Source: Paracoccaceae bacterium
GTDB lineage: Bacteria > Pseudomonadota > Alphaproteobacteria > Rhodobacterales > Rhodobacteraceae
Reading direction: 5' to 3'
DNA: 64,000 bases
NCBI GenBank assembly: GCA_024742455.1
Contig: JANSYL010000009.1
Span: 1-64,000, forward strand
Shown: positions 50,604 through 57,118 of the stretch, in pieces
How the letters are laid out: each line of letters starts with the position of its first letter
Position numbering within the stretch: the first letter of the stretch is position 1
Notes under the pieces: generated by a model
What the model saw: the letters and a program-made list of their open reading frames with translations, nothing else
Database searches by the model: none
What the model was told of the DNA's origin: nothing
Program-made: the position numbers and the translations under genes

Positions 50604-52475
50604 ATGATGTCAAACTCCGCTGACACTGACCCTCTGACAGGCCATGAGGTGATCCAGGGATACCTGAAATCCCTCGATAACAGCCCAGGCGTGTATCGCA
50701 TGCTCGATGCACAATCCCGGGTGCTCTACGTGGGCAAGGCGCGCGCACTGAAAAAGCGGGTGGCGAACTATGCCAACCCCTCCGGCCACTCGCCGCGCAT
50801 CGCCCGCATGATCCGCGACACCGCGTCGATGATGTTCCTGACAACACGCACGGAAACCGAGGCGTTGCTGCTGGAACAGAACCTGATCAAGCAGCTGAAA
50901 CCGAAATACAACGTGCTGCTGAGGGACGACAAATCCTTCCCCTACATCTTCATCTCGTCCGAACACGACTTTCCCCGGATCGAGAAACATCGCGGTGCCA
51001 AAACGCGCAAGGGGCGCTATTACGGCCCCTTCGCCAGCGCGGGCGCGGTCAACCGGACGTTGAACACACTGCAGAAGGTGTTCCTGCTGCGCTCCTGCTC
51101 GGACCGCGAGGTCGAGGCGGGCGACCGCCCCTGTCTCAACTACCACCTCAAACGCTGCGCCGGCCCCTGCGGCGGCAAGATCAGCAAGGAGGATTACGCC
51201 AGGCTGGTGCGCGCCGCCGATGATTTCCTGCAAGGCAAATCGACCGAGGCGCAGGGCGCGCTCAAGGTCGAGATGGAGGAAGCCGCGCAAGCGATGGAGT
51301 TCGAACGCGCCGCAGCCCTCCGCGACCGCATCCGCGCGCTGACACAGGTGCAGACCGCCCAGGGCATCAACCCCCGTGGCGTGGCCGAGGCGGATATCTT
51401 CGCACTGCACATGGAGGGCGGGCAGGCCTGCGTGCAGGTCTTCTTCATCCGCGCCAACCAGAACTGGGGCAACCGCGATTACTACCCCCGGGTCGGGCCG
51501 GACATCGAGGAACCCGAGGTGCTCGAGGCGTTTCTGGGTCAGTTCTACGACAACCGCGAACCCACGCGGCAGATCATCCTGTCCCACCCGCTGCCGAACC
51601 CCGACCTGATGGCCGACGCGCTGGGGCAAAAGATCGACCGCAAGGTCGACGTCCTCGTCCCCCAGCGCGGGGAAAAGGCCGAACTGATCGACAGCGCCTT
51701 GCGCAATGCCCGCGAAAGCCTCGCCCGCCGCATGGCCGAAAACCAGACGCAGGCGAAACTGCTGGCGGGGCTGGCCGAGGCCTTCGATCTCGACACGCCC
51801 CCGCGCCGGGTCGAGATCTACGACAACTCCCACATCCAGGGTGCCCATGCCGTGGGCGCGATGGTGGTGGCCGGGCCGGAAGGCTTCGAGAAAGGCCAGT
51901 ATCGCAAGTTCAACATCAGGGGCGATGACCTGACCCCCGGCGACGATTTCGGCATGATGCGCGAGGTTCTGACCCGCCGCTTCCAGCGCCTGCTCAAGGA
52001 AGACCCAGACCGGGAATCAGAGGCCTGGCCGGACCTTCTGCTGATCGACGGCGGCGCGGGGCAGGTGACCGCGACGCGCCAGATCATGGAAAGCCTCGGC
52101 ATCACTGATGTGCCGTTTGTCGGTGTCGCAAAGGGCATCGACCGTGACCAGGGGAAGGAGGAGTTTCACCGCCCCGACCGCAGCGCCATGGCCCTGAAAC
52201 GCAATGATCCCGTCCTCTACTTCATCCAGCGCCTGCGGGACGAGGCGCACCGCTACGCCATCGGCGCCCACCGCGCCAAACGCGCGAAGACCATCTCCGC
52301 CACCCCGCTCGACGACATCCCCGGCGTCGGCGCCACCCGCAAACGCTCGCTGCTGACCCATTTCGGCTCCGCCAAGGCCGTCAGCCGCGCCAACCTCGCC
52401 GACCTGAAGGCGGTGGACGGTGTCAGCGAGGCGATGGCGCAGAAGATCTACGACTATTTTCATGAGAAGGGGTGA
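50604..52475 (+). CDS. uvrC: Excinuclease ABC subunit C
   Basis: 623 residues, full-length UvrC, making the 3' and 5' incisions of nucleotide excision repair. The N-terminal GIY-YIG nuclease (SPGVYRML...VLYVGKARALKKRV) is followed by a Cys cluster, the UVR UvrB-binding domain (EEAAQAMEFERAAALRDRI, near 225), the RNase H-like nuclease (EIYDNSHIQGAHAVGAMV, LLIDGGAGQ) and C-terminal helix-hairpin-helix motifs (IPGVGATRKRSLL, VDGVSEAMAQKI). Two adjacent ATGs (50604 and 50607) start it. The spacer upstream holds a DnaA box. Confidence 0.97.
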   Translation: MMSNSADTDPLTGHEVIQGYLKSLDNSPGVYRMLDAQSRVLYVGKARALKKRVANYANPSGHSPRIARMIRDTASMMFLTTRTETEALLLEQNLIKQLKPKYNVLLRDDKSFPYIFISSEHDFPRIEKHRGAKTRKGRYYGPFASAGAVNRTLNTLQKVFLLRSCSDREVEAGDRPCLNYHLKRCAGPCGGKISKEDYARLVRAADDFLQGKSTEAQGALKVEMEEAAQAMEFERAAALRDRIRALTQVQTAQGINPRGVAEADIFALHMEGGQACVQVFFIRANQNWGNRDYYPRVGPDIEEPEVLEAFLGQFYDNREPTRQIILSHPLPNPDLMADALGQKIDRKVDVLVPQRGEKAELIDSALRNARESLARRMAENQTQAKLLAGLAEAFDLDTPPRRVEIYDNSHIQGAHAVGAMVVAGPEGFEKGQYRKFNIRGDDLTPGDDFGMMREVLTRRFQRLLKEDPDRESEAWPDLLLIDGGAGQVTATRQIMESLGITDVPFVGVAKGIDRDQGKEEFHRPDRSAMALKRNDPVLYFIQRLRDEAHRYAIGAHRAKRAKTISATPLDDIPGVGATRKRSLLTHFGSAKAVSRANLADLKAVDGVSEAMAQKIYDYFHEKG

Positions 52476-52583
52476 GGGGGGCAAGTACGGTGCCTTTAAG
52501 CCCGTAGGAACCTTTCGTGCTGACTTAAATCAAAGACCAGTATGGATGCTGGAACGCAAGATTTTTCCAGAATCCATTACTGA

Positions 52584-53171
52584 CTACGTCATGAAGTTCT
52601 TGGGGTTTTGGGGGTCGAGATCCCAGAAATTCTGATGCGCAATTTGGTAAATCAAATCAAACTCTTTCCACCCAAGCATAGGGGTCCTGTGAACTTTGTA
52701 TTTTCCGAGTTGTTCGGCTTTTTGATGTTTCTCTAAACGTCCATACGACCCGCTCAAGTCTCTGTCCGCCTTCGGAGCAGCATAGCGTCCTGACCAGTAA
52801 AGTACCTGTGTCATATAGGTTAGACGGTAAGAGTCCTCTTCCGAAAGCTTGGGGAGGTCAGCTTCAGACCAAAGCTCGTAGACATCATGTGTAAAACGTG
52901 GCGCTTCATTTTTTTTGAGACACAAAATAGCTTTTGATATGAGCTCTAATGAAATTGAAGCTTCACGCAAAAAGCTTTCATAAAGTGCATAGGCAGGATC
53001 GCCGCCGTATCCTGCTTCTGAGGCTAGATCACCGTATGAATTCTCCCTGATATGTGACAAGATATACGCAGACATTCGCGCGTTGGAGGCTTTTGCGTAG
53101 AAATGAAACGGTGCTTTTCTCCGCTTTTCCCAGATGCTTTCCAGTTCCTTCCAATTATCGTTCTCGGTCAT
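52584..53171 (-). CDS. AT-rich orphan gene, HEPN-like protein of unknown function
   Basis: 195 residues. It is visibly AT-rich against GC-rich neighbours and uses A/T-ending codons, a sign of recent transfer. The centre reads ASISLELISKAILCLKK...RFTHDVYELWSEADLPKL, then VLYWSGRYAAPK, matching the helical layout of HEPN proteins (Glu-Leu-x-x-Lys-x-x-Leu, then a Thr-His-Asp-like turn). No clear catalytic R-x4-6-H is present, so nuclease activity is not supported. ATG 53171 is preferred to a TTG at 53186. No antitoxin nucleotidyltransferase is adjacent. Confidence 0.65.
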   Translation of the reverse strand: MTENDNWKELESIWEKRRKAPFHFYAKASNARMSAYILSHIRENSYGDLASEAGYGGDPAYALYESFLREASISLELISKAILCLKKNEAPRFTHDVYELWSEADLPKLSEEDSYRLTYMTQVLYWSGRYAAPKADRDLSGSYGRLEKHQKAEQLGKYKVHRTPMLGWKEFDLIYQIAHQNFWDLDPQNPKNFMT

Positions 53172-53291
53172 TGAAATTCCAATCAATGCTCAAATAAATG
53201 GCTGCTTAAGGAAGCTGCAGACGCCAGATCCTAAGGCGTTCCCTCAGTTGTTTCATAAACGAGTGGCAGTAAAGCTCGCGACCCCCTCCCT

Positions 53292-54392
53292 TCACAAAAC
53301 CCCCTCCCACACCGCCTGCGGCAGCACATGCACCCCCGCCTCTGCCGCCGCACCGTCCCCCACCACATACCCGATCCCCGCCGCCATCACTGCCAGCGTC
53401 ACGTCGAAGGCGTTCAGGCTGTCGCCTTCCCCGCCCGTCAGGTTCGCCATCGCCCCGCCCACGAACAAATGCACCCGGTGGCCCGAGGGCAGGCTGTGGG
53501 TCGTCACGCCCGGGGTCGGCGTCTCGGACGGCAGGGCCAGCAACGGCCCCAGCTCGATCTCGTCGATCAGGTGCCCCGCGTTCAGCAACAGGCACCCGTC
53601 CCGCAGCCCTCTCATCACCGGGAACGGCAGCACATGCCGCGCCCCGGTGGCGGTGACGATCACGTCGGCCTCGCCCGCCAGCGCCTCTACCGTGCCGAAC
53701 CGCCACCCGTCATAGCGCGCCTGCAACGCGCGCCCCGGGTCGACCTCGGCCACCATCACCGTCCCGCCGAAGGCCCGCGCGCTCGCCGCCAGCCCCTGGC
53801 CCACGGACCCGTAGCCCACGACCAGCACCGTCTTCTCATGCAGGCTGAGCAGCGTCCGCTGGAACAGCGCGGCCCATGTCGTCAGCCCGACCATGTGCCG
53901 GTTGTGCAGCCCCTCCTTCACCGGCAGGTCGTCCCAGTTGAAGATTGGCCATGGCGGCAGCGCGCCTTGCAGCCGGTTCATCCCCGATCCCGTCGCCTCC
54001 AGCCCCGCACGCACGGAAGGCATCGCGCGGCCGGTGGTCAGCAGGTGATGGGTGTAATCCGCCCCCATCTCGCTCAGATGCGTGGGCGCCCAGTCGATCC
54101 CCCCGGCGATCGCTGTGTCCCAATCGGCCTGCCCCATGTCCTTCCACGCGACCACCTCGGCCCCCAGGCCCCGCATCTCCGCCACCACCGCGTCGCGCAC
54201 GGTCGCGGGGTTGCAGGTGGTGATGTAGAGTTCCGCGCCTTTGGCGCGCAGCCCCGCCACCAGCGGCACCATCTTCATGTCCAGATGCATCGACATCGCC
54301 AGCCGCACGCCTTGCATGTCAGGCAGGCCCGACACGGCGCGGGCGACGCGCGGCATCTGCGCAGCGGCCCATTCCGGCGTGATCCCGGTCAC
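53292..54392 (-). CDS. S-adenosylhomocysteine hydrolase-like protein, short and altered
   Basis: 366 residues resembling adenosylhomocysteinase in its substrate and NAD domains: MSMHLDMKMVPLVAGLRAKGAE, then VLVVGYGSVGQGLA (NAD loop, GYGDVGKG in SAHH) and LNAGHLIDEIEL. It is about 100 residues shorter than typical SAHH and lacks the C-terminal Lys/Tyr NAD-closing tail. In the catalytic block VKEGLHN the Lys and Asn remain but the Asp of K...DN is His. It therefore may have changed activity. It overlaps the upstream MFS gene (ATGA). Confidence 0.78.
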   Translation of the reverse strand: MTGITPEWAAAQMPRVARAVSGLPDMQGVRLAMSMHLDMKMVPLVAGLRAKGAELYITTCNPATVRDAVVAEMRGLGAEVVAWKDMGQADWDTAIAGGIDWAPTHLSEMGADYTHHLLTTGRAMPSVRAGLEATGSGMNRLQGALPPWPIFNWDDLPVKEGLHNRHMVGLTTWAALFQRTLLSLHEKTVLVVGYGSVGQGLAASARAFGGTVMVAEVDPGRALQARYDGWRFGTVEALAGEADVIVTATGARHVLPFPVMRGLRDGCLLLNAGHLIDEIELGPLLALPSETPTPGVTTHSLPSGHRVHLFVGGAMANLTGGEGDSLNAFDVTLAVMAAGIGYVVGDGAAAEAGVHVLPQAVWEGVL

Positions 54393-55672
54393 CCGCGCCC
54401 CTCCGCGGCGTCGGCTTCCGGGCCGTCGAAGGGCAGCGCCTCCTCCTCGCCGGCGCCCAGGGCCGCGGTTTCGGGGGTCGCGCTGCGGGCGGGCACGCTG
54501 ATCTGGAAGGCGACCTTGTCTGCCTCGGGCGGGGCGGCGCGCTGCAGGATGCGCCAGACGGCGAACCCGATGATCGCCAGATGCGCCGCCACCATCGTCA
54601 GGAACAGGCCCTCCGGCCCGATCCCCTGCATCACCGCCCCGGCCGCCAGCGGCCCCAGGATCGCCCCCATCCCGAAGACCAGCAGCAACCCCCCCGACAC
54701 CTGGATCGCGGTGCCCGGCGGGGCGTGGTCATTGGCATGGGCGATGATCACCGGATACATCGAAAAGATCGCCGCACCCAGCAGCCCCACCAGCACCAGG
54801 TTCGCCGTGTCGCCTGCAGGTGCCGCGATGACGAAGGCCAGATCGGCCAGCAACGCCACCCCGGCAATCCCCACCAGCACCCAGCGCCGGTCGGTCCGGT
54901 CGCTGATCCAGCCCACCGGCAATTGCGCCAGCGCGCCTGCCAGGATCGGGATGCTGGCAAACAGCGCGATGGTGGCGATGGGCAGGCCAATGCGTTCGCC
55001 ATAGACCGCCGCCAGCGTCCCGAACGCCCCGTTCGACACGCCGACCAGCAACACCGCCCCCACCGCCACCGGCGAATTGCGCCACAGCGCGGGCAGGTTC
55101 AGCCGCACCTCGGTCAGCGGCGCGGGCGCGGCCGATGTCGACAGCGCCGTCGGCACCAGCGCCAGGCAATAGACCATCGCGCCCAGCGCGAAGAACAGGA
55201 ACCCGGTCGTGTCCCCGAGCGAGATCACCAGTTGCCCCGCCGTCGCCGCCGCCAGGTTCACCATCGTGTAGATGCCGAAAATCGTGCCCCGCGTGCGCGC
55301 ATCGGCCCGGTCGCTCAGCCAGGATTCCACGATCATCGCCGCGCCCGCGAAACAGAAGCCCGACACCGCGCGCGTGGGGATCCAGGCCCAGTCGGTCACC
55401 ACCAGGGCCTGGCTCAGGATGGCGATGGCCGCCAGCGCGCACATGACCCCGAAGGTGCGGATATGGCCCACCGCGCCCACAAGGCGTGGCACCAGCACGC
55501 AGCCCGCCACGTATCCGATGGCCCAGCCCGTGCCCAGCAGGCCCAGGGCGGTGTCCGAAAACCCTTCCTGCGCGCCGCGCACCGGCAGGATCAGCCCGTT
55601 GATCCCGCCCGCGAACAGCAGCAGGGCCGACCCGGTCAGAAGCGCGGTGATGGGAAGCAGATGCCGGATCAT
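54389..55672 (-). CDS. Major facilitator superfamily transporter (YcaD-like)
   Basis: 427 residues with about twelve hydrophobic spans. The loop RADARTRGTIFGIYTMVNLAAATAG and VESWLSDRA place it near the YcaD-type MFS group. SDRTDRRWVLVG is the usual charged loop between the halves. The last 50 residues are a cytoplasmic, acidic tail (GAGEEEALPFDGPEADAAEG). The SAHH-like gene overlaps its stop (ATGA), so both are probably expressed together and may handle the same nucleoside or sulfur compound; this is inference. Divergent from pgsA. Confidence 0.87.
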   Translation of the reverse strand: MIRHLLPITALLTGSALLLFAGGINGLILPVRGAQEGFSDTALGLLGTGWAIGYVAGCVLVPRLVGAVGHIRTFGVMCALAAIAILSQALVVTDWAWIPTRAVSGFCFAGAAMIVESWLSDRADARTRGTIFGIYTMVNLAAATAGQLVISLGDTTGFLFFALGAMVYCLALVPTALSTSAAPAPLTEVRLNLPALWRNSPVAVGAVLLVGVSNGAFGTLAAVYGERIGLPIATIALFASIPILAGALAQLPVGWISDRTDRRWVLVGIAGVALLADLAFVIAAPAGDTANLVLVGLLGAAIFSMYPVIIAHANDHAPPGTAIQVSGGLLLVFGMGAILGPLAAGAVMQGIGPEGLFLTMVAAHLAIIGFAVWRILQRAAPPEADKVAFQISVPARSATPETAALGAGEEEALPFDGPEADAAEGRG

Positions 55673-55754
55673 GACCCGATGCTAGCCTGCCCTCCCTGCG
55701 CCCGGAACCCCCGATGCTCTGGCCCCGGCGCGCGCGCTGCGCTACACCCGCGCC

Positions 55755-56420
55755 ATGCGCATGACCCTGCCCAACGCCCTGACCGTTTTCCGCCTCTGGG
55801 CCGCGCCCGGGGTGGTGCTGGCCTTTCTCGTCCTGCCGCGCCCCTATGCCGACTGGACCGCGCTGACCTTGTTCATCGCCGCCTCCGTCACCGACTACCT
55901 CGACGGCTATCTGGCGCGCAAATGGGACCAGGTGACGAAGCTGGGCACCATGCTCGACCCGATTGCCGACAAGGCGATGGTGGTGCTGGCGCTGGCGGTG
56001 GTGCTGGCGCTCAACGGTGCGATGCCGGTGCTGCTGGTGCCCGTCGCGATCATCCTGTTCCGCGAGGTTTTCGTATCCGGCCTGCGCGAATTCCTGGGCG
56101 ATACCGCGGGCACGCTGGCGGTCACCAGGCTCGCCAAATGGAAGACGACGGTGCAGATGCTGGCCATCGCGCTGCTGTTCGCCTGGGGCCTTTTCGACCA
56201 TTATTTCTACATGCAGGTCCTCGGGATGGATCCGGGCATCGTCGGCGGTATCCTGTCGGGTGAGATCGCCGATGACGTGGGCCTGAACTGGAAACGCTGG
56301 GGTCTGCTGATCACGTCGAACGGGGGCATCCTGCTGCTCTGGGCGGCGGCGCTGCTGACCCTGATCACCGGCATCGACTATTACCGCAAGGCCCGCCCCC
56401 ATCTGCAGGAGGGTCCATGA
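55755..56420 (+). CDS. pgsA: CDP-diacylglycerol-glycerol-3-phosphate 3-phosphatidyltransferase
   Basis: 221 residues with four to six hydrophobic spans. The CDP-alcohol phosphotransferase motif is complete: DGYLARKWDQVTKLGTMLDPIADK, giving D-G-x2-A-R-x8-G-x3-D-x3-D. It makes phosphatidylglycerol-phosphate, the first committed step to phosphatidylglycerol. ATG 55755 (MRMTLPNALTVFRL) or 55761 may start it. moaD overlaps by 4 bases. Confidence 0.95.
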   Translation: MRMTLPNALTVFRLWAAPGVVLAFLVLPRPYADWTALTLFIAASVTDYLDGYLARKWDQVTKLGTMLDPIADKAMVVLALAVVLALNGAMPVLLVPVAIILFREVFVSGLREFLGDTAGTLAVTRLAKWKTTVQMLAIALLFAWGLFDHYFYMQVLGMDPGIVGGILSGEIADDVGLNWKRWGLLITSNGGILLLWAAALLTLITGIDYYRKARPHLQEGP

Positions 56421-56668
56421 AGATCGAGATCCGCTATTTCGCATGGGTCCGCGAACGCGTCGGCGCCGCCTCGGAAACGCTTGAGACCGAGGCCGCCACT
56501 ATCGCCGATCTCATCGCCGAACTTTCGGCGCTGAGCGAGGGGCATCGCCACGCCTTCTCCGACCCCGAGGCGATCCGCGCCGCGCTCGACCAGACGCTGG
56601 TCGACATGGATGCCCCGATCGCGGGCGCGCATGAGGTGGCCTTTTTCCCGCCGATGACCGGCGGCTGA
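56417..56668 (+). CDS. moaD: Molybdopterin synthase sulfur-carrier subunit MoaD
   Basis: 83 residues of the ubiquitin-like fold, ending in PPMTGG; the terminal Gly-Gly is thiocarboxylated and donates sulfur to precursor Z in molybdopterin synthesis. KIEIRYFAWVRERVGAASE is the usual N-terminus. ATGA overlap with pgsA and 3-base spacing to moaE show one operon. Confidence 0.95.
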   Translation: MKIEIRYFAWVRERVGAASETLETEAATIADLIAELSALSEGHRHAFSDPEAIRAALDQTLVDMDAPIAGAHEVAFFPPMTGG

Positions 56669-56671
56669 CCG

Positions 56672-57118
56672 ATGCAGCGCGTCACCGTGCAGCACGGTCC
56701 GTTCGATCCCGGGGCGATCCTGTCGGCCTTCACGGGGCTGGCCGACGGCGCCGGGGCCGTGGTCAGCTTTTCCGGCATCACCCGCGATCTCGCCGCGCAT
56801 GATCTCGTGGCGATGGAGATCGAACATTACCCCGGCATGACCGAGGCCGCGCTCGAGGATATCCGCAGCCGGGCCATCGCCCGTTTCGACCTCATCGATG
56901 CGCTGGTGCTGCACCGGTATGGCCGCCTTGCCCCGGGCGATCCGATCATGATGGTCGCCACCGCCGCCCGTCACCGGGCCGCGGCCTTCAAGGGGGCGGA
57001 GTTCCTGATGGATTACCTGAAGTCCCGCGCCCCGTTCTGGAAAAAGGAAATCACCGCGACCGGTGCTGCATGGGTCGCGGCAAAAGACGACGATGAGGCG
57101 GCGCTCACCCGCTGGTGA
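56672..57118 (+). CDS. moaE: Molybdopterin synthase catalytic subunit MoaE
   Basis: 148 residues of MoaE. The family pattern is GAVVSFSGITRD, MEIEHYPGMTE, VLHRYGRLAPGD and the catalytic Lys block LKSRAPFWKKEI. The enzyme joins with MoaD to convert precursor Z to molybdopterin. It ends the pgsA-moaD-moaE operon and is convergent with the OmpA-associated pair. Confidence 0.95.
   Translation: MQRVTVQHGPFDPGAILSAFTGLADGAGAVVSFSGITRDLAAHDLVAMEIEHYPGMTEAALEDIRSRAIARFDLIDALVLHRYGRLAPGDPIMMVATAARHRAAAFKGAEFLMDYLKSRAPFWKKEITATGAAWVAAKDDDEAALTRW

What the first reader, a model, noticed from the sequence alone, without database searches (positions are those of the whole stretch)
52476..55754. Probable insertion between uvrC and pgsA carrying an AT-rich HEPN-like gene
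uvrC and pgsA-moaD-moaE look like one conserved Rhodobacterales cluster, yet here three minus-strand genes split it. One (52584-53171) is strikingly AT-rich and HEPN-like; the others are GC-rich (SAHH-like and MFS). The composition step at about 52480-53290 marks an AT-rich acquired module. HEPN proteins are common in defence and toxin systems, so an orphan here is worth checking. I see no terminal repeats or integrase.
Basis: partly seen in the sequence, partly recalled or inferred. Interest (0 to 1): 0.6.

Follow-up and report, generated by a model that had tools for sequence, protein, structure and literature searches.

The report
Lone foreign HEPN gene beside uvrC
A single AT-rich gene, very probably picked up from another bacterium, lies just after a DNA-repair gene and encodes a small HEPN-type protein of a kind usually linked to RNA-cutting defence or toxin systems; it is a rare but not unprecedented sort of gene.

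Summary
The ORF at 52584-53171 (-) is real (195 aa) and sits in the window's most AT-rich stretch: GC 0.45 against 0.67, ML block 52441-53273, essentially the whole uvrC-to-SAHH gap. It is a HEPN protein: PF05168 is its only Pfam match (21.7 bits, cut-off 22), and a profile of it and eight relatives aligns with stand-alone HEPN-T proteins at 97.3% (E 2.4e-11), which match solved HEPN structures. It lacks Rx4-6H at the expected place but keeps the residues described for AF0298-type HEPN-T and AbiV: E76/K80, H95, R129-Y130. Its close relatives form a patchy subfamily, often on plasmids or beside mobile or defence genes. Only the own genome matched credibly in 394 family and 385 class genomes. 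No nucleotidyltransferase partner lies beside it. The wider claim of one three-gene insertion in a conserved cluster is weaker: uvrC-pgsA is adjacent in 24 of 56 relatives, separated in 9 and unseen in 23; the SAHH-like and MFS genes have host-like composition and separate histories. Best reading: a solo, mobile HEPN-T/AbiV-like RNA-targeting effector. Function is inferred, not shown.

The parts
52584..53171 (-). HEPN-T-type gene, 195 aa (P0001); ATG start at 53171, a TTG start at 53186 is also open
52441..53273 (.). AT-rich block (GC 0.45), maximum-likelihood borders; in practice the gap between the uvrC stop and the SAHH-like stop
52476..52583 (.). AT-rich gap between uvrC and the HEPN gene (GC 0.47), two convergent 3' ends
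53172..53291 (.). AT-rich gap between the HEPN gene and the SAHH-like gene (GC 0.48); no ORF of 20 aa or more confined to it
50604..52475 (+). uvrC, left neighbour, aligned to its end with family homologues
53292..54392 (-). SAHH-like gene, host-like composition, relatives in Hyphomicrobiales; probably not part of the AT-rich acquisition
54389..55672 (-). MFS transporter gene, overlaps the SAHH-like gene by 4 bases; host-like composition
55755..57118 (+). pgsA, moaD and moaE, right neighbours

Best explanation
The gene is a horizontally acquired, solo HEPN-T-type protein of an unnamed subfamily (about 200 aa, with a tryptophan just before the RY that ends helix 3). It most likely works like AbiV or AF0298-type HEPN proteins: probably as a dimer it binds and may cut RNA through an alternative site made of E76/K80 (helix 2), H95 (the stretch between helices 2 and 3) and R129 (end of helix 3), and so slows translation or growth when a phage or a stress triggers it. 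Shown here: foreign composition, absence from sampled relatives, HEPN homology by sequence, and conservation of those residues. Inferred: the helix assignments, dimerisation, RNA cleavage, the trigger and the defence role.
For: PF05168 is the only Pfam family matched, over its cut-off in the genome-wide search. The profile of P0001 plus eight relatives aligns with six stand-alone HEPN-T proteins at 97.3%, E 2.4e-11; those match solved structures 1ufb, 1o3u, 4nqf and 1wol. E76, K80, H95 and Y130 are invariant in 15 of 15 rows and position 129 is R in 13 and K in 2, as PMC3710099 describes for AF0298-type HEPN-T and AbiV (passages). GC is 0.454 against 0.669 for the window. Only the own genome matched credibly among 101, 394 and 385 genomes (the sets overlap). 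Relatives lie beside an AbiTii gene, restriction and methylase genes, a phage-tail gene and tmRNA, an IS3 transposase and close to a HipA gene.
Against: No experiment and no usable structure model. The canonical Rx4-6H is missing at the end of helix 3. A profile of the nine own-type rows alone finds no HEPN structure in the PDB, and 3 of those 9 have no PF05168 match at E up to 1. An earlier profile comparison with six rows a side was weak. No PADLOC model matches. The neighbourhood evidence is a handful of loci without a background rate.
Confidence: 0.5

Rival explanations
1. A non-catalytic HEPN domain: an RNA- or nucleotide-binding protein, or the orphaned half of a former HEPN-MNT toxin-antitoxin pair that lost its nucleotidyltransferase.
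For: The canonical Rx4-6H is absent at the end of helix 3; no MNT gene lies beside it and the genome's three PF01909 matches lie in long frames of 942 and 965 aa; PMC3710099 says HEPN domains that lack conserved polar residues may be inactive binders (passage).
Against: E76, K80, H95 and R/K129 are kept in all 15 rows, which suggests selection on a polar site. Nine own-type relatives are likewise not seen with an immediately adjacent MNT in the loci that I looked at, so a lost partner is not needed; only the Rhizobium plasmid has a nucleotidyltransferase gene, about 2 kb away on the other strand.
Confidence: 0.25
2. A passenger: an acquired gene without a role in this host, on its way to decay.
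For: Its composition is unlike the host's; only the own genome carries it among those sampled; it sits between two convergent gene ends; the one promoter-like site found overlaps the start of the gene and does not lie upstream of it.
Against: The frame is intact over 195 codons and all residues invariant in the family are kept.
Confidence: 0.2
3. Not HEPN: another all-helical protein whose match to PF05168 is by chance.
For: The Pfam score is at the cut-off and the fold model failed.
Against: Profile comparison E 2.4e-11; the same PF05168 region is matched by 6 of 9 own-type members at E up to 1; the motif residues agree with the literature.
Confidence: 0.05

Closest known systems
HEPN-T family (Pfam PF05168; AF0298/2hsb, TM0613/1o3u)
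   Same: Ex3K, the conserved H between helices 2 and 3, the R/K-Y at the end of helix 3, stand-alone architecture; members are said to cluster with restriction-modification operons (PMC3710099 Table 1, passage)
   Different: About 200 aa instead of about 125-140, an extra tryptophan before RY, extended N and C termini, score at the Pfam cut-off
AbiV (abortive infection HEPN of Lactococcus)
   Same: Solo HEPN without the H of Rx4-6H and with the alternative H at the HEPN-T position (PMC3710099, passages)
   Different: No AbiV model matched; no sequence comparison with AbiV itself was made; phage defence untested
HepT/MntA (HEPN-MNT toxin-antitoxin)
   Same: HEPN superfamily
   Different: No MNT partner gene beside it, no Rx4-6H at the end of helix 3
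AbiTii-HEPN proteins (c2405 and Ymh types)
   Same: In one relative (L156) an AbiTii gene precedes the HEPN gene in tandem
   Different: Separate genes there instead of a fusion; no AbiTii-like gene next to the window's HEPN gene

Membership tests
HEPN-T (PF05168) | Match to the Pfam profile | tested here: met
   21.7 bits, E 2.4e-4, just below the cut-off of 22 as an annotated protein; 22.3 bits, over it, in the six-frame search: a borderline match, strengthened by profile comparison E 2.4e-11
HEPN-T (PF05168) | Polar site: Ex3K, alternative H, R/K at the end of helix 3 | tested here: met
   E76/K80, H95, R129 conserved in 15 of 15 rows, R or K at 129; the expected pattern is from PMC3710099
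HEPN-T (PF05168) | Four-helix HEPN bundle | tested here: inconclusive
   Single-sequence model mean pLDDT 36.7; an alignment-based model was not admissible for these relatives
AbiV | Sequence membership in the AbiV family | tested here: not met
   No PADLOC family at E up to 10 and no NCBIfam or Pfam Abi family; whether PADLOC holds an AbiV model was not checked, so it is named only as what this may work like
AbiV | Blocks phage | not testable with these tools
   Needs an experiment
HEPN-MNT toxin-antitoxin (HepT/MntA) | Adjacent minimal nucleotidyltransferase gene | tested here: not met
   No such ORF beside it; the genome's PF01909 matches are on other contigs, in frames of 942 and 965 aa
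HEPN-MNT toxin-antitoxin (HepT/MntA) | Rx4-6H at the end of helix 3 | tested here: not met
   After R129 only a D at +7; the Rx4-5H matches at residues 17-23 are N-terminal
Integron gene cassette | attC core RYYYAAC/GTTRRRY at the 3' end of the gene | tested here: not met
   3 matches in L001, chance mean 4.5; the one within the insert lies inside the ORF. The core pattern is recalled

The most novel reading that the evidence does not exclude
The W-signature HEPN proteins are an undescribed, single-gene, mobile anti-phage module that works as an RNase with a non-canonical H95/R129 active site, in some hosts wired to an AbiTii partner in a two-gene operon, and here dropped alone behind uvrC.
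Probability: 0.25. Interest if true: 0.5.

Novelty: new member of a known kind. Interest (0 to 1): 0.25.

Why it matters
If active, it would be a compact test of whether HEPN domains without the canonical Rx4-6H motif still cut RNA, which the 2013 HEPN survey (PMC3710099, passages read) proposed on sequence and structure grounds. It also marks a patchy subfamily that the PADLOC models missed in the four members scanned. As a genome feature it is an ordinary single-gene acquisition.

Tried and rejected
Integron cassette: no attC-like core at the gene's 3' end. Transposon or island: no convincing inverted or direct repeats and no tRNA. Phage origin: no match of P0001, the L129 protein or the L157 protein in phage records, and no relative in viral contigs with four queries. 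Known defence model: none for P0001. uvrC-pgsA as a defence hotspot: the 9 loci with pgsA displaced carry ORFs that, read by eye and not scanned, look like ordinary genes (for example an EF-P-like and a lysyl-tRNA-synthetase-like ORF in G025) or no clear gene. A structure from an alignment was not attempted, because the relatives come from plasmid records and whole-genome pieces that the folding tool says it does not accept. The 24 weak rows besides the own genome (best E 0.07, short stretches, several with stops) were treated as noise. Of 59 family genomes other than the own with a uvrC match, 56 were taken downstream; three (G012, G020, G043) were dropped because the match lacks the 3' end. 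Hit rows L147, L149 and L154, and one of the two HEPN-like frames each way in weaker loci, were not put into alignment A3; A3 holds 15 chosen rows. Literature: four searches and passages of one paper, PMC3710099; all other papers were seen as search listings only.

Full report
What is there. Between uvrC (50604-52475 +) and pgsA-moaD-moaE (55755-57118 +) lie three minus-strand genes: 52584-53171, 53292-54392 and 54389-55672. Pfam names the last two as SAHH-like (PF00670, 1.1e-27) and MFS (PF07690, 9.6e-36), and the first as HEPN (PF05168, E 2.4e-4, 21.7 bits against a cut-off of 22). The six-frame search of the own genome scored the same match at 22.3 bits, over the cut-off. No NCBIfam, PADLOC or PHROGs model matched the first.

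Composition. The HEPN gene has GC 0.454 and GC3 0.480, against 0.71 and 0.91 for its two minus-strand neighbours and 0.646 and 0.853 for uvrC. The lowest 800-bp GC in the window is here, 0.453 at 52441; all 800-bp windows have mean 0.670 and sd 0.033. A two-changepoint likelihood scan of 50604-55754 puts one low-GC block at 52441-53273 (lnL gain 81.6), in practice the interval from the uvrC stop to the SAHH-like stop. Only this gene and its flanks are AT-rich, so the composition step does not cover a three-gene module.

Distribution. With the protein as query, only the own genome matched among 101 genomes of the relatives search at E 0.001 and among 385 of its class at E 0.01. Among 394 of its family, 25 genomes had a match at E up to 1, but the 24 besides the own were weak (best 0.07). 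No relative was confirmed in the named species genomes (17 pattern hits, none confirmed), in phage records or in viral contigs. Two Agrobacterium plasmids gave a 31% match over 85 residues. Through that protein came relatives on plasmids of Rhizobium and Azospirillum, and through a further one Bradyrhizobium. Profile searches found 3 of 385 class genomes, own included, and 13 of 398 phylum genomes, own included. The best full-length relative, L157:7718-8302, is 26% identical over 175 residues and also 195 aa long. Its plasmid search matched nine records, adding Alteromonas, Pseudoalteromonas and Burkholderia. PF05168 in general is uncommon near here: 4 of 61 genomes, own included.

Family membership. 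I aligned P0001 with eight own-type relatives (A4) and, separately, six proteins recovered with the same profile that look like ordinary stand-alone HEPN-T proteins (A5). Two of those six were scanned and match PF05168 strongly (7.3e-15 and 5.8e-8). The two profiles align at 97.3% probability, E 2.4e-11, over the region carrying the Ex3K, the H and the RY. A5 matches the solved proteins 1ufb, 1o3u, 4nqf and 1wol; Table 1 of PMC3710099 lists 1o3u among HEPN-T structures (passage). Against this: A4 alone finds no HEPN structure (only row Pvc7, E 1.3), an earlier comparison with six rows a side was weak, and A5 was recruited by a profile of this family and so is not independent. Of the nine A4 members, six match PF05168 at E up to 1.

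Active site. In 15 aligned rows E76, K80, H95 and Y130 never vary, and position 129 is R (13) or K (2). A tryptophan at 126 is present in 9 of 9 own-type rows, with a gap there in 6 of 6 HEPN-T rows, so the own-type rows form a recognisable subfamily. Passages of PMC3710099 say that the canonical motif Rx4-6H lies at the end of helix 3; that AF0298-type HEPN-T and AbiV keep the R, typically lack that H and have another conserved H N-terminal to it that could replace it; and that many families carry an Ex3[KR]. P0001 fits that description: no H at the right distance after R129, but H95 and E76-K80. Catalysis is therefore possible but unproven.

Context of relatives. In genome G1070 the relative follows an AbiTii-domain gene (PF18864, 2e-37) in tandem on the same strand, near a plasmid-type replicase gene. 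On the Bradyrhizobium plasmid it lies between an Mrr-like endonuclease and a DNA methylase, with a kinase-like gene matching PADLOC PD-T4-6 models further on. In G1114 it stands between a phage-tail gene and the tmRNA gene. On the Pseudoalteromonas plasmid it is next to an IS3 transposase and a DUF3265 gene. On the Alteromonas plasmid a HipA gene lies close by, with one small ORF between. In G838 a DUF4062 gene lies about 1.1 kb downstream. The gene is poorer in GC than the rest of its locus in 7 of 10 loci, and not in L158, L111 and L131. The picture is of a mobile gene often near defence or mobile genes, with no fixed partner. I have no background rate for such neighbourhoods.

The junction. 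Of the family genomes in the relatives search besides the own, 59 had a uvrC match. I took 56 downstream pieces and dropped three with an incomplete match. pgsA begins within 200 bp of uvrC in 24, at 479-3627 bp in 9, and is absent from the piece (about 1-7 kb) in 23; all 33 found are on uvrC's strand. None of the 56 pieces matched the SAHH-like, MFS or HEPN protein at 1e-4. So adjacency is common but not universal, and unrelated ORFs occupy the gap in other genomes. The SAHH-like gene is 69-77% identical to 13 genes in contigs labelled Martelella, Pseudovibrio and Ancalomicrobiaceae, and one labelled Marinicella whose gene order looks like Martelella's; none has the MFS, HEPN or uvrC gene within the fetched flanks. 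It had no match at 1e-40 in 100 relatives. The MFS gene has close relatives (72% and 64%) in two same-family genomes. The three genes therefore probably did not arrive together.

Mechanism. My best reading is a solo HEPN-T/AbiV-like effector acting on RNA through the alternative residues. Dimerisation, cleavage, trigger and phage defence are inferences from the family. The rivals are a non-catalytic binding protein or orphaned toxin half, and a functionless passenger. The genome shows no small nucleotidyltransferase: its three PF01909 matches lie in frames of 942 and 965 aa on other contigs. The structure test failed for lack of an admissible alignment: single-sequence mean pLDDT was 36.7.

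Verdict. A real, correctly located and correctly guessed HEPN gene of foreign composition. It is a new member of a known kind, of modest interest.

Noticed in passing
L156:1533-3052 (genome G1070, contig 143): An own-type HEPN gene follows an AbiTii-domain gene in tandem on the same strand (within about 75 bp, or overlapping if the upstream start is used), near a Replicase/PriCT gene: a possible two-gene AbiTii-HEPN module. PMC3710099 describes AbiTii fused to other HEPN types.
   Followed up: partly
L129:1964-3178 (genome G747): A 404-aa ORF without any Pfam or PADLOC match lies on the same strand beside the own-type HEPN gene and ends its middle part with RNQFLH, an Rx4H-like string as in canonical HEPN domains (read by eye).
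   Followed up: partly
53292-54392: A divergent SAHH-like protein (366 aa) whose 13 close relatives (69-77%) are all in Hyphomicrobiales contigs with varied neighbours; in two Ancalomicrobiaceae contigs it is near what look like BMP/nucleoside ABC-transporter genes (the last read by eye).
   Followed up: partly
52468-52483 and 53280-53308: G-rich strings that are roughly inverted to each other stand just after the uvrC and SAHH-like stops, at both edges of the AT-rich block. In a GC-rich genome this may be chance; it was not tested.
   Followed up: no
L134-L139 (genomes G013 and G028): Same-family genome G028 carries five proteins of roughly 360-410 aa matching PF05168, and G013 one of 369 aa, that look like nucleotidyltransferase-HEPN fusions; the nucleotidyltransferase part was read by eye.
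   Followed up: no
L157:7718-8777 (genome G1114): The best full-length relative lies 95 bp from a tmRNA gene and downstream of a phage-tail gene, so probably at the end of a prophage-like insertion at ssrA.
   Followed up: partly
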